NCBI RefSeq assembly: GCF_023347235.1
Contig: NZ_CP094467.1
Coordinates: forward strand, 1,612,001 to 1,676,000
Direction: 5' to 3'
Length of the DNA stretch: 64,000 bases
Source of the DNA: Faecalibacterium sp. I4-1-79
GTDB lineage: Bacteria; Bacillota; Clostridia; Oscillospirales; Ruminococcaceae
Positions 49,819-58,818 of the stretch are shown piece by piece. A model generated the notes under the pieces. The model ran no database searches, was not told the DNA's origin, and saw nothing but the letters and a program-made list of their open reading frames with translations. Position 1 is the stretch's first letter; the number at the start of each line of letters is the position of its first letter. Made by a program: the position numbers and the translations under genes.

Positions 49819-50850
49819 ATGGCAGAAGGTCGTGCAGGAGCGCTTGAAGATTATGCAACTGCGGCGTTTTCTGTGTCTGGCGTGAAGCAAGACATTTCGT
49901 TGGAGGATTGGAAAGGCGGCTGGGCTTCTATTGTCGGCGGTTTGAACGGAAAGCCGACAAGCCAGCAGTTCAACATGGTTACATATATTTTGAGTGCCCT
50001 GCTGAATCAGGCCATTTCCGACCTGTCTACCGTTAAGGGAACGGCAAACAGCGCGTTGCCTAAGAGCGATTTTACGGCGAAACAGATTGTGGCCCTGCTG
50101 GCTGCATACGGGCTGATGGAAGGCTGTGATGCCGATACGGTTGATGGTAAACACGCGAATGCTTTTGCACCGTCTACGCATGAACATTCTGCAAGCCAGA
50201 TTACAAGCGGGAACCTTCCGATTGAACGCGGTGGTACAGGTTCTGGCACCTCCGCTGATGCCTGCAAAAACCTTGGCGCAATGCGCAATGTGGGCGGCAC
50301 GTTCACCGGAACGGTGTATTTTGCAAACGGCACGGTACATTATGTGACATCCGCAGGTGATGCACACTTTAAGTCTTTGTCGGTGTCAGGTGATATTTCC
50401 GCGCAGCGTGTCTACGATGCGGTCTACAACGACTATGCGGAGCTCATGCCGCGTGGCGAGCAGACCGAACCCGGTGATATTATCGCTCTGGATACTGGGA
50501 GCCAGATGGAACGGTATATCAAGGCCACGAACCTATCTAGCCGTATCGCAGGCATCCACACGGATGAGTACGCTATGCTCATTGGTGGAAATAAAGTGGT
50601 TGAAGGGCAGGATTTCCTTGAGGAAAACCTGCCCGATTTTATTCCGGTGTCCTTAGCAGGACGTGTTCACACGAAAGTGGTTGGACCTGTCCATACGGGC
50701 GATTACATCGTTCTGTCCAGCGCGCCCGGCGTTGGGCGCGCGGTCGGCTCGTGCGAATCGTACCCGGCGAACAAAATTGTGGGATACGCCTGTGAGGGTG
50801 ATAACCGCACGGATCTGCGGCTTGTGAAGGTGAGAGTAGGTGGTGTGTGA
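49819..50850 (+). CDS. tail fibre protein
   Basis: A 343-aa protein. Fibre motifs ADTVDGKHANAFAPSTHEHS and GNLPIERGGTGSGTSADACK, which occur in stalk regions of many fibres; the C-terminal domain (AVYNDYAELMPRGEQTEPGD, IIALDTG, GYACEGDNRTDLRLVKVRVG) resembles fibre chaperone or autoprotease-like ends. It ends in a TGATG overlap with the cysteine-comb gene, so the two are translationally coupled. Confidence 0.85.
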   Translation: MAEGRAGALEDYATAAFSVSGVKQDISLEDWKGGWASIVGGLNGKPTSQQFNMVTYILSALLNQAISDLSTVKGTANSALPKSDFTAKQIVALLAAYGLMEGCDADTVDGKHANAFAPSTHEHSASQITSGNLPIERGGTGSGTSADACKNLGAMRNVGGTFTGTVYFANGTVHYVTSAGDAHFKSLSVSGDISAQRVYDAVYNDYAELMPRGEQTEPGDIIALDTGSQMERYIKATNLSSRIAGIHTDEYAMLIGGNKVVEGQDFLEENLPDFIPVSLAGRVHTKVVGPVHTGDYIVLSSAPGVGRAVGSCESYPANKIVGYACEGDNRTDLRLVKVRVGGV

Positions 50851-51950
50851 TGGCTCAAAGAAGCACAAAGGTTTACTCGGCCGACTACACAGAACTTAAA
50901 AAACAGCTGGACGCTGAACTTAATCGTCGCGGAAAAAGCGAAGGGACAGGACAGGGCCAGAGCGTTGGAAGCATGGCGGCTTATATCAGTTCTTTTTCTG
51001 TCGTCCCTGCGGCCGGTAGGCAAATTACCAATGAGCACATCCAGAAAATTACACAGCCTATCTCGGCGATTACCGGAAGCGCTATCACACCGGAAAACGG
51101 CTCCAAGGTCGCTGCAGATGTGCTCACCCGGGCGGCTGCACTGCTTAGCCAATTGAGCGCGATTTCTGAAACTGCAACATCCAGCGGCTGCGGCGGGGCT
51201 TGCTCGGGGCTCTGCACTACGGGTTGCTATTCAGCCTGTTCCAGCTGTACCGGCTCATGTACGGGAGGCTGTACCGGCTCGTGCACAAAAAGCTGTGCCA
51301 ATGATTGCACCGGCTCATGCACCGGCTCTTGTGTGAGCACTTGCACAGGGACTTGCACGGGTTCCTGCACTAAGTCGTGCGCCAACGACTGTACCAGCAC
51401 CTGTACAGGCACCTGTACTGGCAGCTGTACCGGCACCTGCACAGGAACCTGTACGAAGACGTGTGCCAATGACTGCGGGGGAAGTTGTGCTGGCGGTTGC
51501 ACAGGTACATGCGCTGGAACGTGCGTAGGCACTTGTACTGGTAGTTGCACAGGAAGCTGTACAAAGACGTGTGCGGATAACTGCACTAACAATTGCAAGA
51601 CATCCTGCAAGGGAGGATGTTCTGGTAGTTGTGATGGATGTTCAAGTACTTGTGAGGGAAGCTGTAGCGCAAATTGCGCAGACGACTGTGCAAGTAACTG
51701 TACCACGAACTGCAAAAGCTATTGCGCTAGTGACTGTCAGGAAACCTGCACGGGTTCAGGTTGCCTTTTGAACTGTGAATCGGGCTGTTCTAATAGTTGC
51801 AAGGGTTCATGCAATTCGCACTGCGGCGAGCGCTGTACGAGCAGTTGCGATACCAGTTGCGACGGTTGCTCTGGCTCCTGCAGTGGTAGCTGTAGTGGTA
51901 GCTGCAGCGGGAGTTGTGGAGGAAATTGTTCTGGAGGACTTTTGTGGTAA
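50850..51950 (+). CDS. CXXX-repeat protein with about 63 cysteines
   Basis: A 366-aa protein. Residues 1-110 form an ordinary polar N-terminal domain (STKVYSADYTELKKQLDAEL, AAYISSFSVVPAAGRQITNE). From about residue 115 to the end, cysteine occurs nearly every fourth position (CTGSCTGGCTGSCTKSC, CANDCTGSC and variants), interrupted by a few CxxC and one CxxxxC. A C-TKS/T-C-AND-C block recurs every 28 residues three times. Spacer residues are small (T, G, S, N). The linked radical SAM enzyme and helper point to a modified repeat protein on the phage tail. Confidence 0.85.
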   Translation: MAQRSTKVYSADYTELKKQLDAELNRRGKSEGTGQGQSVGSMAAYISSFSVVPAAGRQITNEHIQKITQPISAITGSAITPENGSKVAADVLTRAAALLSQLSAISETATSSGCGGACSGLCTTGCYSACSSCTGSCTGGCTGSCTKSCANDCTGSCTGSCVSTCTGTCTGSCTKSCANDCTSTCTGTCTGSCTGTCTGTCTKTCANDCGGSCAGGCTGTCAGTCVGTCTGSCTGSCTKTCADNCTNNCKTSCKGGCSGSCDGCSSTCEGSCSANCADDCASNCTTNCKSYCASDCQETCTGSGCLLNCESGCSNSCKGSCNSHCGERCTSSCDTSCDGCSGSCSGSCSGSCSGSCGGNCSGGLLW

Positions 51951-51962
51951 TAGGAGAATGAT

Positions 51963-52547
51963 ATGGAAATGACTGTTCGTTATGCAAAAAATGCTGATGC
52001 TGATGTTGATGCATCATACCTCCGCAATCTGCCGCTTATCAAACTACTTCAGCAGGAACCGGTAAATACAGAGGACTGGGATGTGCTTCTTTCTGCAACA
52101 CCCAATGGAGAAGACAAGCTGCTTTGGTGCCTTAGTTATGTTGGAGCCCTTTGCGCTCTTGATGCAACGGATTTTGATAACTGGTTTATCTACTGTTTGA
52201 CTGTAATCGATTCGGCGCTGGAGGCTTGCAAAATTGAGAGCGCGTCCGAAGAGCGCAAAAATCTTCTGGCCCTTGGTTTGGCAGCACGGACGTTCAATTT
52301 TTCCGCAAATCCTGTCACTAAGCAGCTGAAATGTGGAGATACACTGCGGAGTGCCGGGGAATATGCCTGCTCTGAGGATGCAGATATCTTTGCGATGTGG
52401 TACGTTCTTCGTACTTTAACCGATTACCTTCGGCTGAACTTCAATGAAAATCTTCGGGCACTTACTTCTGCAATGGGAGCCATGAACAAAATTCGGGCCC
52501 GGTATACTCAGATCGTGGGGCGACTTCCCAAGATTGATGCTTGCTGA
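51963..52547 (+). CDS. unknown protein of the CXXX locus, 194 aa
   Basis: Starts MEMTVRYAKNADADVDASYL after TAGGAG. All-helical (LLWCLSYVGALCALDATDFD, MWYVLRTLTDYLRLNFNENL). No family recognised. Position between the repeat protein and its probable maturation genes suggests a scaffold or partner protein; this is inference. Confidence 0.65.
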   Translation: MEMTVRYAKNADADVDASYLRNLPLIKLLQQEPVNTEDWDVLLSATPNGEDKLLWCLSYVGALCALDATDFDNWFIYCLTVIDSALEACKIESASEERKNLLALGLAARTFNFSANPVTKQLKCGDTLRSAGEYACSEDADIFAMWYVLRTLTDYLRLNFNENLRALTSAMGAMNKIRARYTQIVGRLPKIDAC

Positions 52548-52561
52548 GAAAGGATGCCAAC

Positions 52562-52864
52562 ATGAAGATTATTGAACTGTCCCAAGTCGAAAGCGAGACT
52601 GTGGAACGGGCATTTTATGAGGTTGATTCATACGAAAAAATTATGGCAGTACTCAACCGCCAACTGAACGCCAAAGCAAACTCCGATACAAAGGAAATTA
52701 TCATGCACTATGCGGAACTGTGCCGTATGGCCCACATGAAACTGCAGATGGCGCAGAACGCGGTACTGAAAAACCACATCGATTTGAGCAGTGAACCTTT
52801 CAACGGATACCAATTTGACTTTGGACGGAAGGAGGTGCAGTTGTTTGAAAAGCAAACGGTTTGA
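52562..52864 (+). CDS. small helical protein, candidate CXXX-repeat modification helper
   Basis: A 100-aa protein starting MKIIELSQVESETVERAFYE (GAAAGGA 8 nt upstream). Two long helices (SYEKIMAVLNRQLNAKANSD, LCRMAHMKLQMAQNAVLKNH). Ends overlapping the radical SAM gene by 20 nt. Size and linkage match the small helper protein named with CXXX-repeat peptide modification systems; sequence match not verified. Confidence 0.6.
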   Translation: MKIIELSQVESETVERAFYEVDSYEKIMAVLNRQLNAKANSDTKEIIMHYAELCRMAHMKLQMAQNAVLKNHIDLSSEPFNGYQFDFGRKEVQLFEKQTV

Positions 52865-54185
52865 GGATTACGGAAACTCTGTCCAGAGACTGTACTGCCG
52901 TGATTTACCTGAAACGCGAAGTGCTTGTCGCAATGTTACATTTCAGGTGACCAGCGGGTGCAATCTCAGATGTTCGTATTGCTACGAGCATCACAAAGGA
53001 GCGGAGAGTATGACTCCCGAAACCGGCAAAAGAATCGTTGATTATCTGCTGGATCTGTATAAGCAGAACACCTCTGACTTCGTCAACCAAGACACAAAAG
53101 CCGTTGTTCTTGACTTTATCGGGGGAGAGCCTTTGCTGGAAGCCCCCTTGATTGAATGCATCTGCGATTACTGGTTTGAGCAATGCTGGAAACGCAGTAT
53201 CCCTCTTGCGCCGTTTACCAGAATTTCGTTTGCCACAAACGGTCAGCTGTGGTTCAGTCCTGAAGCGCAGCACCTTTTTGAGAAATATCATGAAATGATG
53301 TCCGTTACCGTCAGCATTGACGGCGTGCAGGAGCTTCATGATATGTACCGACTTGATGAACATGGAAACGGAAGCTTCGCAAAGGCGTGGAAAGCGTTTC
53401 AGGACAGTAAAAAGTACGGCTGGAACGGTTCAACGAAAATGACTTTTGTTCCCGGTTCGTTCAAGTATATCGCAGATAGCATCATAATGATGCTGAATGA
53501 GGGATGCGACAGCATTGCCTGTAACTATGCTTATGAGCCTCTTTATAATCCGTCAGATGGCTATGTTTTGTACAGCCAATTGAAAATTGTGGCTAACTAC
53601 ATTGTGAACAATAGGCTGGATGTGCTGGTCACAATTTTTGACAGCCTCTTAGGGGGGAGAGCTAAAGACAATCACAACTTTTGTGGTGGCACGGGCTCTA
53701 TGCTATCGTTTGCTCCTGATGGATCTGCGTACCCCTGCATTCGATACGCACCCATTAGTATTGGCGAGGAAAAGTCGAAGAAAGTTCGCTTCGGCAGCGT
53801 CTATGATGGTCTGTATACCACTGATTCCCAACGCAAGGCTAAAGCAGAACTCGATGCGATTACCCTCACCTCACAGTCTGAGCAGAAGTGTATTGACTGC
53901 CCTGTATCTGCCGGCTGTGGCTGGTGTTCCGGTTTGAACTATGAGATGTACGGCACAGCCAATAAACGCTTTACGGGCATCTGCTGGGCTCATAAAGCCC
54001 GCGTTCTTGCAAGCGCATACTATCACAACCGGCGGTACATCGAAATAGGGGATTGCCTTCCCATCAAGGCTGAACTGCCAAAAGATGATGCTCTCGAGAT
54101 ACTTCCCGCTGCCGACTATGAAGAGTTTCTTAAAATCGAAAGAGCAGCCCTTCTGAAATTCGCTGATGAAAATGGAATCGGCTGA
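52845..54185 (+). CDS. radical SAM/SPASM peptide maturase (CXXX-repeat target type)
   Basis: A 446-aa protein; TTG start chosen for the perfect AAGGAGGTG 7 nt upstream. Radical SAM cluster CNLRCSYCY (Cys39, 43, 46), then FIGGEPLL and ISFATNGQLW with VSIDGVQELHD. C-terminal SPASM-like cysteines at 280, 298, 349, 352, 358, 361 and 380 (CIDCPVSAGCGWC) would hold auxiliary clusters. Such enzymes install thioether or other carbon-linked crosslinks on peptides. Substrate is presumably the cysteine comb two genes upstream. Confidence 0.88.
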   Translation: MKSKRFEDYGNSVQRLYCRDLPETRSACRNVTFQVTSGCNLRCSYCYEHHKGAESMTPETGKRIVDYLLDLYKQNTSDFVNQDTKAVVLDFIGGEPLLEAPLIECICDYWFEQCWKRSIPLAPFTRISFATNGQLWFSPEAQHLFEKYHEMMSVTVSIDGVQELHDMYRLDEHGNGSFAKAWKAFQDSKKYGWNGSTKMTFVPGSFKYIADSIIMMLNEGCDSIACNYAYEPLYNPSDGYVLYSQLKIVANYIVNNRLDVLVTIFDSLLGGRAKDNHNFCGGTGSMLSFAPDGSAYPCIRYAPISIGEEKSKKVRFGSVYDGLYTTDSQRKAKAELDAITLTSQSEQKCIDCPVSAGCGWCSGLNYEMYGTANKRFTGICWAHKARVLASAYYHNRRYIEIGDCLPIKAELPKDDALEILPAADYEEFLKIERAALLKFADENGIG

Positions 54186-54196
54186 AAGGAGAATGT

Positions 54197-54784
54197 ATGG
54201 CGATTCTGATTGCGAGTACCCTGCTGGAAACCGAAACCGAGGCATGGTACTCATTCTATGTGGACACGATGGAAGATGTCAAAGGTCTGCCTACGAGCAA
54301 AAGCACGGGTTCATCGTACAAGGTCAAAAAATTTGCAAAGCCGGCCAGTCAGGCATACTGCATCGAAATGGCGGCGCAATACGTCCTGGACGGTAATGAT
54401 GAATGGCGGTTGCTCTATGCAATCCGCGATGATGTGGCAGATGCAATTCTGAAAAATGTGGAAGAAATCAAGCAGATCGTTGCCAATACCAGCGCATCGG
54501 AACAGGCTGCGGCGCGGAGCGCATCTGCGGCAAATGCCAGCGCAATCGCGGCCAGCAAGTCCGAAAGAATCTCCACAGAAAATGCGTCTTCTGCGGCGGC
54601 AAGTGAGCGCGCATCGAGGGATAGTGCATTAGACGCAAGAGCTGCCGAAGGAAATACGCTGAACTACATGAACCGGACAGCGGACATTGCCAATCAGGTG
54701 GCAGGGTCGGCGGCATCTATCAATTTTGCATTCGGACCGGATGTCGATGGCCGTTTCTCCTTTTTTGTCCGCAGGAGCAGTTAA
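54197..54784 (+). CDS. coiled-coil tail protein with short C-terminal tip motif
   Basis: A 195-aa protein. N-terminal globular part (MAILIASTLLETETEAWYSF), then about 85 residues of alanine/serine/glutamate coiled coil (ASEQAAARSASAANASAIAA) and a terminal INFAFGPDVDGRFSFFVRRS. The same end motif GPDxxGRxSFF closes the 87-aa protein at 55051-55314. Probably a trimeric fibre or adaptor. AAAGGAG precedes the ATG. Confidence 0.7.
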   Translation: MAILIASTLLETETEAWYSFYVDTMEDVKGLPTSKSTGSSYKVKKFAKPASQAYCIEMAAQYVLDGNDEWRLLYAIRDDVADAILKNVEEIKQIVANTSASEQAAARSASAANASAIAASKSERISTENASSAAASERASRDSALDARAAEGNTLNYMNRTADIANQVAGSAASINFAFGPDVDGRFSFFVRRSS

Positions 54785-55329: not shown

Positions 55330-57057
55330 ATGGCTGACACATGGGAACTTATCAATCATCCTCTGACCGATGAAACCGGTCTGGTACTGGCCGCTCAGAT
55401 GAAACGCCAAAATGACATTTTGGCAGGCATTGCTGCTGGTACTGCCGGTGCGGAATTCGTGGATGCAACATTCCGCGGTCTGCTGGATGGCAAAAATACC
55501 ACAGAAATCTTCTGGAGCTGGTGGCCGCTGTCTGCCGGTGATGGCGTGACGAAGTATCAGCGTCTGGAACGCTTTGCGAAAATGCTCGCAGAGAGCGCTC
55601 GCAGCAAAACCTACACCGTTCGCTTCTACAGTGATGATGTGAGTGGTGATTACACCGGCACCCCGCTGGATGATCTGGCAGACGGGCGTGAAGCGGCTCC
55701 GCTTCTGACTGACACCAGCCCGGAAACCGCAGACTGGTCGGAAGAGGATCCTTTCACATGGTACATTCGCGCCAATGCGCTGTCCTTGGAAGATGGCACG
55801 ATGAACGTGCTGGCAGTTGAGGGTGAAACCGGGTTTGATCTTTCCGGCGAAACCGCACCCGTTTACTGCTTCGCTCTGTCCTTGATGCTGAAGGAGTGGG
55901 AGGATGGCGCATACCTGTATAACTCTTTCCGCACCTTCGAGGGCGGCGGCTATGATCCTATGGCTGGCGATGTGGCCCCTGATAAGAGTCGCCGCTGGCT
56001 GACATGGCACCCGGCTTTCCTTGGCGGCAAAAATTCCAAGGGTGGAATGACCAGCGGTGCTGGACTGCCCCCGATGCCGTGGACAAGCGCCAACGCAGCT
56101 ATCCCTATGGCTCGTAAGATTACCGCTTATGATGCCCTGTGGACTGACTGCGACCAGCAGTATGTTCTGGCCCAATGGCGGTTGCGCCATTGGACGCTGA
56201 GCAACAGCGGCAAGCTGGAGGGCTGCACTGTCTATAATTACCAGTACAGCCCTGCTGTGGCGGAAACTGGAGTAAAGCGAGTGCTCGTGACGAAAGCGCA
56301 GGGGGCAAATTTCCTCGTGGGCTCTGCTGTTTGCATGGGTGAGCGTGGCGAGAATACGGGAACGGACCGCAACACGGACTATAATCATAATATTTTCAAC
56401 TGGGCCAAGATTTCCAGCATTACCAATGTGACCGTGAGCGAGACCGAGTATGTGGCTCTGAACCTTGAGTTGGATTCTCCTATCGACACTACGACCACGA
56501 TGCTGGTATCTACTATGCCGTGGGAGTCCGGCACAACAGAGGGCGTGCAGGGGCATAGCGATGGATGTCGGGGTAATCTGACGAACGGAAAATATCCGTA
56601 CCGTGTGGCCGGCATCGAGATGCAGATCGGCGCTTATACGGAACAGCTTGACCCTCTGTGGAAAGCCAGCATCGTGGACGATGACCACTGGCACTATGAC
56701 GCGTTCTCCTGCAAGAGCGGTGAGAAGCAGGTTGGTTCTATCTCCTCGGACTATGCCCAGACCGGCTCCTTCGACCTGAACGACAAGGCGACTTGGTCGT
56801 GGCACTATATCCGTAAGCTGGGCAAGTTGGGTACGGAAGCCATGATGTATGAAAAGTTCAATGGCAGCGGTTCCACCTATGTACGGGCTGCGTTCGTTTC
56901 GCCCGGTTCGGCGGGTCTGTACGCCCCGTGGCGCGGTGGCGGCCTGGGTGACGGTGCTCCCTGCGGCCTGCCTTGCGCGTATGGCCACCTTTCCCCGGCG
57001 TCCTCGTGCTGGAACGGCGTGCCCCGGCTTGCTGGCTCGGGCAAAAAGAGAGGGTGA
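55330..57057 (+). CDS. DGR variable receptor-binding protein
   Basis: A 575-aa protein starting MADTWELINHPLTDETGLVL, AAQMKRQNDILAG. Middle: WHPAFLGGKNSKGGMTSGAG, PPMPWTSANAAIPM. The C-terminus (about 519-568) is the variable region and reads SPGSAGLYAPWRGGGLGDGA, with NGVPRLAG after it, a C-type-lectin-like DGR fold. Ten residues differ from those the template would encode: 523, 538, 540, 544, 551, 553, 554, 558, 560 and 567. Probably the tail tip protein that touches the host. Confidence 0.9.
   Translation: MADTWELINHPLTDETGLVLAAQMKRQNDILAGIAAGTAGAEFVDATFRGLLDGKNTTEIFWSWWPLSAGDGVTKYQRLERFAKMLAESARSKTYTVRFYSDDVSGDYTGTPLDDLADGREAAPLLTDTSPETADWSEEDPFTWYIRANALSLEDGTMNVLAVEGETGFDLSGETAPVYCFALSLMLKEWEDGAYLYNSFRTFEGGGYDPMAGDVAPDKSRRWLTWHPAFLGGKNSKGGMTSGAGLPPMPWTSANAAIPMARKITAYDALWTDCDQQYVLAQWRLRHWTLSNSGKLEGCTVYNYQYSPAVAETGVKRVLVTKAQGANFLVGSAVCMGERGENTGTDRNTDYNHNIFNWAKISSITNVTVSETEYVALNLELDSPIDTTTTMLVSTMPWESGTTEGVQGHSDGCRGNLTNGKYPYRVAGIEMQIGAYTEQLDPLWKASIVDDDHWHYDAFSCKSGEKQVGSISSDYAQTGSFDLNDKATWSWHYIRKLGKLGTEAMMYEKFNGSGSTYVRAAFVSPGSAGLYAPWRGGGLGDGAPCGLPCAYGHLSPASSCWNGVPRLAGSGKKRG
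56886..57034 (+). repeat. DGR variable repeat (VR)
   Basis: 149 bp in the 3' end of the variable gene, aligned without gaps to TR at 57181-57329 (offset 295). Sixteen positions differ and every one is A in TR; changes are to G, C and T. None of the 127 non-A template positions differs. The VR ends 20 bp before the stop codon. Confidence 0.95.
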
Positions 57058-57058
57058 A

Positions 57059-57147
57059 TATGTGCCGTAGGCACATAGAGGGGGTGTAACCCCCTAATCC
57101 CCGTTCACGTTTCCCAGCTTGCGCCGATGGTTTACCATCGGCGCAAG
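57059..57147. promoter_or_regulatory. three hairpins between VR and TR
   Basis: Hairpin 1: TATGTGCC/GGCACATA with GTA loop (57059-57077), starting 24 bp after VR. Hairpin 2: AGGGGGT/ACCCCCT with GTA loop (57079-57095). Hairpin 3: CTTGCGCCGATGG/CCATCGGCGCAAG with TTTA loop (57118-57147). In the Bordetella phage DGR a hairpin/cruciform just after VR helps target recognition; hairpin 1 or 2 is well placed. Hairpin 3 may terminate the target transcript or shape the TR RNA. Confidence 0.7.
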
Positions 57148-57180
57148 CCGATTATTTTATGGAGCAATGAAGCGGCGTGT

Positions 57181-57329
57181 GGCTGCGTTCATTTCGCCCG
57201 GTTCGGCGGGTCTGTACGCCCCGTGGCGCGGTGGCAACCTGAATGACGGTGCTAACTGCGGCCTGCCTTGCGCGAATGGCAACAATTCCCCGGCGAACTC
57301 GAGCTGGAACGGCGTGCCCCGGAATGCTG
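57181..57329 (+). repeat. DGR template repeat (TR), probably transcribed as RNA
   Basis: 149 bp, partner of VR. Read in the VR frame it has eight Asn AAY codons at the variable sites; AAY codons cannot mutate at A to a stop. It lies between the target gene and the RT in the usual order. A short open frame across it (with its own stop at 57338-57340) is a consequence of copying VR and not evidence of a protein. Confidence 0.93.
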
Positions 57330-57573
57330 ATGATAAATAGCCCTCAAAAGGGCATAAGCGTTTCATTGCGCCTGTGGCTTGACCACTAAGATCATGTTAT
57401 ACCGACACCATGCAGCTGAGCGTTTCGAGATATACGGACGCATTGGTGAGAGCGTGGCCGCAGTTTTTGGGACTGCGTGGCGGTGAGTAGTAGAAATCCG
57501 TTTTGCCTGATTTAAGGCCTGAAACGGCAACCGAAATCCGTTGAACATCAGCAAGTTTGGAGGCTTTAAGGAT

Positions 57574-58818
57574 ATGAAAACAAAGAGGTACTTGTCGCTC
57601 AATCATGAAATGTGCGAGCGTGCTGTCCTTGAAGCTTTTGATAAGAAATGGTTCCGCCGGGATTACCTCGCTACGGTGGAAAAATATGGAGGTGTAAGCC
57701 GTGCACAACTATCGAGCGCCGCCCGCGTAAACGACTGGAACCCGCGTTTAGAAGCCGTAAATGGGATTGCTCTTGAAATGGAGCAACGGATAGAAGATTT
57801 GTTGGACGGAGAAACAGACGACCTTGATCTTGACCCTGTGAGCGTGTTCTACAGAATTGATGGAATCAGCATGAAACGGCGGGAACTGTCTAACTGCTGT
57901 CCAATGCACCAAGCTTTTGGGCATTTGGCGGTACTTGGACTTCGCCCGTTGCTTCAGGCAAAACTGTTGCCGTATCAATTTGCCAGTATTCCCGGCAAGG
58001 GACAAATCGCTTTGAAGCGTCAAGTCGAGCGTTGGCTTCGCAGAAAAAGTCTTGGCATACAGTATGCAATAAAGCTGGATGTGCAGGGGGCATACGCCCA
58101 CACAAAACAGGAACTTGTGATGAAGATCCTGCAGAAAGAAATCCCGGGAGCAACATGGCTTCTGGCTGTTGTCAAATGTCTTTTAGCAATGGCTCCGGGT
58201 GAGGGATTGCTTATCGGCGGCTATCTTGAAGCGTGGCTTTTTAACCTTGTTGCCAGCTATATGCTGGTCAAGGTCATGAGTTATGCAAAGATTCGCCGTG
58301 GAGCATCCACGCGATTCGTGATCCGCAGCGGTAGCTATATGGATGACCTTGTTTTGTTTGGCCGACGATGGGCTGACATACAGAGTGCAGCCCGAAAATT
58401 GACTAAGTGGGCGCTGACCGAACTGGGATTGACAATAAAAAACGAGTGGGTTCGTGTGGACTTTCTTAGCGCCGCTGAAGAGCATCAACGCAGACACCTA
58501 ACGGGAGCGGCAAAAGGATGCCCGGGTTTGGATATGGCTGGCTATGTGATGCACCGTACCTACACCACGATACGCCCCAGAATTTTTCTGAGGGCTCGGC
58601 GGCAGTACATTCGAGCCAAGGCTGATGTTTCACGAAATGGATATGTGCCGGTCTGGCGGTCATACAAGCTGGTCAGCTATAACGGCTATTTTGACTGGAC
58701 AAAATCTCGTGCAATCAGCGAAGCCCTAAAACAGAAAAAGCTGTTCACGGCCGCAAAAGTAGCAATCCGCGTAACGGCACAAAGAAATGCAATGAAGAAA
58801 GTGAGGATAGCAGCATGA
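57574..58818 (+). CDS. DGR reverse transcriptase
   Basis: A 414-aa protein (ATG at 57574, TTGGAGG at 10 nt). RT motif A KLDVQGAYAH (Asp169), motif C SYMDDLVLFG (YMDD 255-258), and QFASIPGKGQIALKRQVERW before them. The motif-4 segment is IGGYLEAW (214-221) where most DGR RTs have IG-x-x-x-SQ. The basic C-terminus resembles a thumb. Copies TR RNA with adenine errors for VR replacement. No Avd-like gene is seen beside it. Confidence 0.92.
   Translation: MKTKRYLSLNHEMCERAVLEAFDKKWFRRDYLATVEKYGGVSRAQLSSAARVNDWNPRLEAVNGIALEMEQRIEDLLDGETDDLDLDPVSVFYRIDGISMKRRELSNCCPMHQAFGHLAVLGLRPLLQAKLLPYQFASIPGKGQIALKRQVERWLRRKSLGIQYAIKLDVQGAYAHTKQELVMKILQKEIPGATWLLAVVKCLLAMAPGEGLLIGGYLEAWLFNLVASYMLVKVMSYAKIRRGASTRFVIRSGSYMDDLVLFGRRWADIQSAARKLTKWALTELGLTIKNEWVRVDFLSAAEEHQRRHLTGAAKGCPGLDMAGYVMHRTYTTIRPRIFLRARRQYIRAKADVSRNGYVPVWRSYKLVSYNGYFDWTKSRAISEALKQKKLFTAAKVAIRVTAQRNAMKKVRIAA

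What the first reader, a model, noticed from the sequence alone, without database searches (positions are those of the whole stretch)
50850..54185. CXXX-repeat protein plus radical SAM/SPASM maturase inside a phage tail operon
Seen: a tail fibre gene is translationally coupled to a protein with about 63 cysteines at every fourth residue over some 250 residues, followed by two helical proteins and a radical SAM enzyme with CxxxCxxC and seven SPASM-type cysteines, then more coiled-coil tail genes. Known: CXXX-repeat peptide maturases and their small helper have been named in bacterial peptide-modification loci. Inference: the phage decorates its tail with a large enzymatically crosslinked, rigid or metal-binding cysteine comb, possibly for receptor binding, mucus adhesion or stability. 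A 28-residue super-repeat suggests growth by duplication.
Basis: partly seen in the sequence, partly recalled or inferred. Interest (0 to 1): 0.93.

Follow-up and report, generated by a model that had tools for sequence, protein, structure and literature searches.

The report
Enzyme-matured cysteine rod in phage tails
A prophage of a gut bacterium, and many other phages, carry next to their tail genes a protein with a cysteine at every fourth position and the radical enzyme that probably crosslinks it, which suggests that viruses harden part of their tails with a chemistry otherwise known from bacterial peptides.

Summary
At 50850-54185, in a contractile-tail prophage, lie a 366-aa protein with 63 Cys (58 of 62 gaps equal four), a 194-aa protein, a ~100-aa helper and a radical SAM/SPASM enzyme homologous to the CXXX-repeat maturase TIGR04115 (293.7 bits, under its 350 cut-off). 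The same order follows a tail-fibre ORF in L001, L007 and L300.

The pairing is general: of viral contigs found by the enzyme alone, 66 of 78 (at least 300 bits, not dereplicated) have a CXXX ORF on the same strand; of cellular homologues under 200 bits, 1 of 46. Between two phages 62 of 62 aligned cysteines are conserved, 33 despite a codon change.

In six of six jumbo phages fetched (SPN3US, CR5, phiEaH2, Huxley, Phobos, Caitlin) two CXXX ORFs lie between tail-region structural genes and a radical SAM pair; none of the 12 is annotated in its own frame.

Most likely: crosslinking in the cytoplasm makes a stiff rod or adhesin anchored on the tail. Gene association and selection on cysteine are shown; virion presence and chemistry are inferred. 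Against: one stop-recoded phage clade keeps helper and enzyme with no CXXX ORF in the DNA held.

The parts
49819..50850 (+). Tail-fibre ORF (343 aa) directly upstream, overlapping the CXXX start by one base
   Evidence: PHROG tail-fibre matches, best E 0.0015; ORF coordinates
50850..51950 (+). CXXX-repeat protein, 366 aa: anchor domain residues 1-113, 63 Cys in residues 114-360
   Evidence: TIGR04114 36.5 bits (cut-off 20), TIGR04117 43.8 bits (cut-off 50); PHROG_6085 E 2.7e-22; spacing test
51963..52547 (+). 194-aa protein of unknown family; an ORF of similar size lies at the same place in L001, L007 and L300
   Evidence: no match
52562..52864 (+). Small helper (100 aa), two long helices plus a beta hairpin
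   Evidence: model mean pLDDT 91.4; no NCBIfam match itself, 2 of 20 aligned helpers match TIGR04116 weakly, best E 0.0043
52845..54185 (+). Radical SAM/SPASM enzyme, TTG start inferred, overlaps the helper
   Evidence: TIGR04115 E 2.4e-87, 293.7 bits, cut-off 350; PF04055 46.9 bits; invariant Cys
54197..54784 (+). Next tail-region ORF (195 aa), weak tail-fibre PHROG matches
   Evidence: best E 0.0071
55330..57057 (+). Target of a diversity-generating retroelement (variable repeat 56886-57034); context, not claimed as part of the mechanism
   Evidence: PHROG_17147 E 6.8e-222; repeat comparison

Best explanation
The cassette is a maturation system for a tail part. The CXXX protein is translated together with the tail fibre. 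In the cytoplasm the radical SAM/SPASM enzyme, with the small helper presenting the substrate, links cysteine sulfurs to nearby residues (most likely as thioethers to small residues three or four positions away), turning the Ser/Thr/Gly/Cys repeat into a stiff rod that is stable where disulfides would be reduced. The N-terminal helical domain is not a cleaved leader but the anchor that docks the rod on the distal tail, where it acts as stalk, spike or adhesin. Shown here: gene order, recurrence of the pairing, conservation of the cysteines, tail-gene context. Inferred: enzyme-substrate relation (about 0.85), location in the tail (about 0.7), thioether chemistry (about 0.5), mechanical or adhesive role (about 0.45).
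For: Enzyme and CXXX ORF on one strand in 66 of 78 viral loci of at least 300 bits and 28 of 34 cellular ones, against 1 of 46 cellular homologues under 200 bits (not dereplicated). Dereplicated viral set: 58 of 66, but this set includes loci found by the CXXX pattern itself. Window against L001: 62 of 62 aligned Cys conserved, 33 with a TGC/TGT difference, while 140 of 186 other residues are identical. Flanking ORFs match tail-fibre, collar, virion-structural and endolysin PHROGs and Pfam tail-fibre, CBM_5_12 and lysis families; a control set from enzyme-free viral loci gives head, helicase, exonuclease and other families, none of the 25 shown with more than two members. Same order after a tail-fibre ORF in L001, L007, L300. 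Anchor domain in 48 of 65 CXXX ORFs of the dereplicated set; all 72 ORF entries that match its profile have CXXX repeats (entries not dereplicated). It lies C-terminal of the Cys region in L214, and some loci have a second CXXX ORF without it (L169, L203, L215), which fits an anchor better than a leader. Jumbo phages: two CXXX ORFs beside a virion structural gene and a radical SAM pair in 6 of 6 fetched. Closest solved relative by profile is 5wgg (E 1.7e-44; recalled as the SCIFF thioether maturase CteB); next NCBIfam model after TIGR04115 is the ranthipeptide maturase PapB.
Against: No chemistry or virion data. Ten viral loci of a TAG-recoded clade have the enzyme, with helper and tail genes in those looked at (L149, L171, L189, L204), and no CXXX ORF in the DNA held, up to about 8 kb each side. 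Cellular systems put twin-arginine signals on CXXX proteins (signals read by eye), so the repeat is not tail-specific. The main texts of three SPN3US papers, searched by term, name no such virion protein. The repeat itself is not modelled (pLDDT under 50), so rigidity is a guess. The enzyme is under the TIGR04115 cut-off.
Confidence: 0.6

Rival explanations
1. The CXXX protein is a tail component, but its cysteines bind metal or form disulfides after lysis; the radical SAM enzyme makes some other change at few sites.
For: Dense Cys could ligate metal; radical SAM/SPASM enzymes catalyse several reaction types (NCBIfam list). The repeat is not modelled.
Against: Nearest characterised relatives by profile make thioethers (5wgg as CteB is recalled); the enzyme tracks CXXX proteins of many lengths and lineages.
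Confidence: 0.15
2. The CXXX protein is not a virion part but a peptide product (bacteriocin, signal or lysogenic trait) that merely lies in the late operon.
For: Bacterial CXXX loci look like peptide-modification loci with export (L008; Tat genes by eye). Related enzymes mature bacteriocins.
Against: No exporter or protease family was matched among the cassette and the neighbouring ORFs scanned (ten ORFs). Position between tail and lysis genes recurs. It occurs in jumbo phages fetched from isolates as well as in prophages. Anchor domain is about 110 aa, long for a leader.
Confidence: 0.13
3. The main substrate is another tail protein; the CXXX protein is an accessory or a sulfur store.
For: The TAG-recoded clade keeps enzyme and helper beside tail genes with no CXXX ORF in reach.
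Against: The CXXX ORF is the constant partner in 66 of 78 viral and 28 of 34 cellular loci of at least 300 bits, the latter including loci without tail genes.
Confidence: 0.08
4. Chance or low-complexity artefact.
For: A nine-fold Cys-codon pattern also hits many period-12 repeats in viral DNA.
Against: Shuffle test, cysteine conservation with codon changes and the enzyme pairing.
Confidence: 0.01

Closest known systems
CXXX-repeat peptide / radical SAM system (NCBIfam TIGR04114, 04115, 04116, 04117, 04119)
   Same: Target with Cys at every fourth residue, radical SAM/SPASM enzyme, small helper with a similar C-terminal motif
   Different: Enzyme under the TIGR04115 cut-off; helper without a match itself; TIGR04119 partner not found among the ORFs scanned; an extra 194-aa protein; phage tail operon; no signal peptide seen
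Ranthipeptide maturases PapB (NF047865) and SCIFF maturase CteB (5wgg; name recalled)
   Same: Radical SAM plus SPASM cysteines; profile similarity E 7.6e-39 and 1.7e-44
   Different: PapB score 133.8 against a cut-off of 340; substrate is a large protein with dozens of cysteines, not a short precursor
PHROG_6085 and PHROG_1802
   Same: Phage families matched by the CXXX protein and the enzyme
   Different: Labelled 'unknown function' and 'radical SAM domain-containing protein'; the output draws no link between them
Cellular twin-arginine CXXX loci (L008, L223 and others)
   Same: Same repeat and enzyme family; L008 meets TIGR04116 and TIGR04119 cut-offs
   Different: Export signal and, in L008, Tat genes (by eye) instead of an anchor domain and tail genes; enzymes form a separate group in the tree

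Membership tests
CXXX-repeat radical SAM system | Target over the TIGR04114 repeat cut-off | tested here: met
   36.5 bits, cut-off 20
CXXX-repeat radical SAM system | Target over the TIGR04117 paralog cut-off | tested here: not met
   43.8 bits, cut-off 50
CXXX-repeat radical SAM system | Enzyme over the TIGR04115 cut-off | tested here: not met
   293.7 bits over model positions 2-359 of 359, cut-off 350
CXXX-repeat radical SAM system | Helper of TIGR04116 | tested here: inconclusive
   window helper no match; 2 of 20 aligned helpers match weakly, best E 0.0043
CXXX-repeat radical SAM system | TIGR04119 partner | tested here: not met
   no match among the ten window ORFs scanned
PapB ranthipeptide maturase (NF047865) | Curated cut-off | tested here: not met
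   133.8 bits, cut-off 340
Ranthipeptide | Cys thioether to a non-alpha carbon | not testable with these tools
   needs mass spectrometry
Radical SAM/SPASM enzyme | CxxxCxxC and conserved auxiliary Cys | tested here: met
   PF04055 46.9 bits; 3 plus 7 invariant Cys in 12 of 12
Phage virion protein | Encoded among tail genes | tested here: met
Phage virion protein | Present in purified virions | not testable with these tools
   supplementary tables of SPN3US proteomics were not readable here; passages

The most novel reading that the evidence does not exclude
Tailed phages of several lineages have recruited radical SAM chemistry to build a virion part: a genetically encoded poly-thioether rod with a cysteine at every fourth residue, docked on the tail. 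In the SPN3US-like jumbo phages the genes are hidden by missing or wrong-frame annotation, so that a crosslinked tail component may have been overlooked in a phage with published virion proteomics.
Probability: 0.5. Interest if true: 0.93.

Novelty: new variant of a known kind. Interest (0 to 1): 0.85.

Why it matters
If true, virion assembly includes RiPP-type radical chemistry, giving phages a covalently crosslinked fibre that can be made in a reducing cytoplasm. It would give a biological role to an uncharacterised maturase family, offer a genetically programmed crosslinked polymer, and correct the annotation of a tail-region locus in a group of jumbo phages. Those phages make the question testable at once, partly by re-searching data that exist.

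Tried and rejected
Chance or low-complexity artefact: rejected by the shuffle test and by cysteine conservation despite codon changes.

Enzyme without CXXX: of the 12 viral loci over 300 bits, two are a short contig (L197) or end in the enzyme (L205); ten have an enzyme frame that is whole only with TAG read as Gln, and still no CXXX ORF. The contigs L157 and L160 of the same clade have a second enzyme with a CXXX ORF about 2 kb on. Six cellular loci over 300 bits lack one too; I did not follow them.

Origin: the quick tree puts 61 of 63 rows labelled phage, with 7 genome rows and one more, in one group (SH-aLRT 94); L063 and L134 fall with cellular systems, and the two jumbo phages on a long branch that the tool flags as unsure. 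Recruitment in several lineages is therefore likely, not proven. A 'careful' tree was not run.

Folds: no PDB match at E 0.001 or better for the anchor domain model or the helper model; two BFVD matches of the CXXX model, one named 'TNFR-Cys domain-containing protein'. No near DNA match of 40000-62000 in the phage collection. No solved chain matches the CXXX profile at E 0.01.

Literature: no paper with 'CXXX repeat', TIGR04114 or TIGR04115; searches listed nothing that I recognised as radical SAM modified phage tails, judging by titles and starts of abstracts; only open-access papers are covered. Haft and Basu 2011 is not held. PMC12750041 passages are irrelevant.
Full report
OBSERVATION. The window is 1612001-1676000 of a 3.23 Mb contig. 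A same-genus genome contig, G329:C65 (24,610 bases), has the length of a Faecalibacterium gallinarum contig (L227), and the two enzyme rows are identical in the tree, so the host is probably a Faecalibacterium. ORFs upstream match terminase, portal, head, tail sheath, tape measure and baseplate wedge families: a contractile-tailed prophage. After the tail-fibre ORF come the CXXX ORF, a 194-aa ORF, a small helper and the enzyme, then further tail-region ORFs and a diversity-generating retroelement whose 16 differences between template and variable repeat all lie at template adenines.

The CXXX protein has 63 Cys in residues 114-360, 58 of 62 gaps equal to four; shuffles reach 17 at most. In the units, position 2 is most often Gly (29), position 1 Thr, Ser or Ala (23, 9, 9), position 3 Ser, Thr, Asn, Gly or Asp (22, 13, 7, 5, 5). 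NCBIfam: TIGR04114 over its cut-off, TIGR04117 under; enzyme TIGR04115 E 2.4e-87 but under its cut-off; helper and 194-aa protein unmatched.

RELATIVES. L001 (enzyme 80% identical) has the whole operon. The faecal phage record MT835573 (L007, 55.9%) and a same-family bacterial genome (L300) have the same order after an upstream ORF that resembles the window's tail fibre by eye; in L300 the helper match is weak (L015, E 0.027). Window and L001 CXXX proteins (63 and 62 Cys) align with 62 of 62 Cys conserved, 33 of them with a TGC/TGT difference, against 140 of 186 identical other residues. Selection holds the cysteines.

GENERALITY. A CXXX ORF on the enzyme's strand is present in 66 of 78 viral loci of at least 300 bits, 0 of 2 viral loci of 200-300 bits (both start at a contig end), 28 of 34 cellular loci of at least 300 bits, and 1 of 46 under 200 bits. 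These counts are not dereplicated; after dereplication of 86 viral loci, a few of them found by the CXXX pattern itself, 58 of 66 have one.

CONTEXT. 123 flanking ORFs of the dereplicated loci match tail-fibre, tail-collar, virion-structural and endolysin PHROGs most often among named families, and Phage_tail_fib, CBM_5_12 and lysis families of Pfam, with single or double matches to others such as tubulin-like, SSB and terminase. 123 control ORFs from viral loci without the enzyme give head, helicase, exonuclease and other families, one of them tail fibre, none of those shown with more than two members. The tool shows 25 families only, so the contrast is qualitative.

ANCHOR DOMAIN. 48 of 65 CXXX ORFs of the dereplicated loci carry the N-domain; all 72 ORF entries that match its profile in the loci held then also have CXXX repeats (entries include near copies). 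AlphaFold gives three main helices (10-29, 61-75, 89-103; ten-residue blocks there 69-88) and no structure for the repeat. The domain lies C-terminal of the Cys region in L214 and, by eye, in L014. Other phages use other attachments: in the jumbo phages a short segment with tail-fibre-like motifs (by eye), in L072 a weak F5/8 type C match under its cut-off and a PHROG tail-protein match (E 2.9e-11), in L134 a Gly-rich segment (by eye). L169, L203 and L215 have a second CXXX ORF without the domain. This argues for an anchor rather than a cleaved leader.

JUMBO PHAGES. In SPN3US, CR5, phiEaH2, Huxley, Phobos and Caitlin (6 of 6 fetched; one search lists 83 phage records matching the enzyme, 47 over at least 80% of it) two CXXX ORFs of 130-156 codons between stops with 20-21 Cys, a small gene with a similar start and few Cys, and a gene of about 300 codons lie between a gene called virion structural protein and a radical SAM pair. 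None of the 12 CXXX ORFs is annotated in its own frame: the genes deposited there are absent, on the other strand or in another frame, while the small gene is annotated in five of the six. SPN3US RefSeq gp100 is the wrong frame of a CXXX ORF. One gene beyond the structural gene lies a 5.2-kb gene that matches by size gp168, a virion protein called a baseplate/tail-fibre candidate (PMC5694885, section 12 read). A later paper set Cys carbamidomethylation as fixed and searched 273 phage sequences (PMC10052503, passages). Published searches could thus easily have missed these proteins; that is inference, as I could not see their sequence lists or supplementary tables.

AGAINST. One phage clade with reassigned TAG codons has tail genes, helper and enzyme and no CXXX ORF in the DNA held, up to about 8 kb each side. 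It is nested among CXXX-bearing phages (five rows, one of which, L157, has a second enzyme with a CXXX ORF), so loss, relocation or a changed substrate is likely; I cannot tell which. Cellular homologues include Bacteroidales proteins with twin-arginine signals (by eye), so the repeat has uses outside phages.

MECHANISM. The enzyme profile's best solved relative is 5wgg (recalled as CteB), and the next NCBIfam model after TIGR04115 is PapB; both are thioether makers (PapB: start of the abstract of PMC9413430; CteB recalled). A thioether ladder formed in the cytoplasm would stiffen a rod where disulfides cannot form. I hold this the likeliest reading, with the odds given above. The retroelement next door targets another tail protein; no link to the cassette is claimed.

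NOVELTY. The CXXX/radical SAM kind is known from family models. Its systematic use in phage tails was not found in the open-access literature searched. Faecalibacterium prophages rich in retroelements have been described (PMC11792537, listing only; no occurrence of 'radical SAM' counted there).

Noticed in passing
L139, L140, L302-L305 (CR5, SPN3US, phiEaH2, Huxley, Phobos, Caitlin): Two CXXX genes per phage (12 of 12) have no annotation in their own frame; wrong-frame or opposite-strand genes are deposited over most of them.
   Followed up: yes
L148, L149, L151, L158, L168, L171, L178, L179, L189, L204; also L144, L157, L160, L199, L217: The enzyme frame in these viral loci is whole, or longer, only when TAG is read as an amino acid: stop-recoded phages. 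The first ten have no CXXX ORF in reach.
   Followed up: partly
L247-L250 (Margulisbacteria, including Candidatus Termititenax): CXXX proteins of 498-672 codons with 79-122 Cys beside a divergent enzyme; in L248 the neighbouring ORFs look like flagellar genes by eye.
   Followed up: no
L008 2222-6270 and Bacteroidales loci such as L223: CXXX proteins with twin-arginine signals; in L008 the enzyme, TIGR04119 and TIGR04116 partners are followed by ORFs that look like TatA and TatC by eye: a possible dedicated export of folded CXXX proteins.
   Followed up: no
window 55330-58818: Diversity-generating retroelement: variable repeat 56886-57034, template 57181-57329, 16 of 16 differences at template adenines, reverse transcriptase 57541-58818.
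   Followed up: partly
L169, L203, L215: Pairs of CXXX genes: one short with the anchor domain and few Cys, one with many Cys and no anchor domain.
   Followed up: no
L185, L221: The part after the Cys region matches the end of PHROG_37329, a 594-position family of unknown function; the same module may occur on other phage proteins.
   Followed up: no
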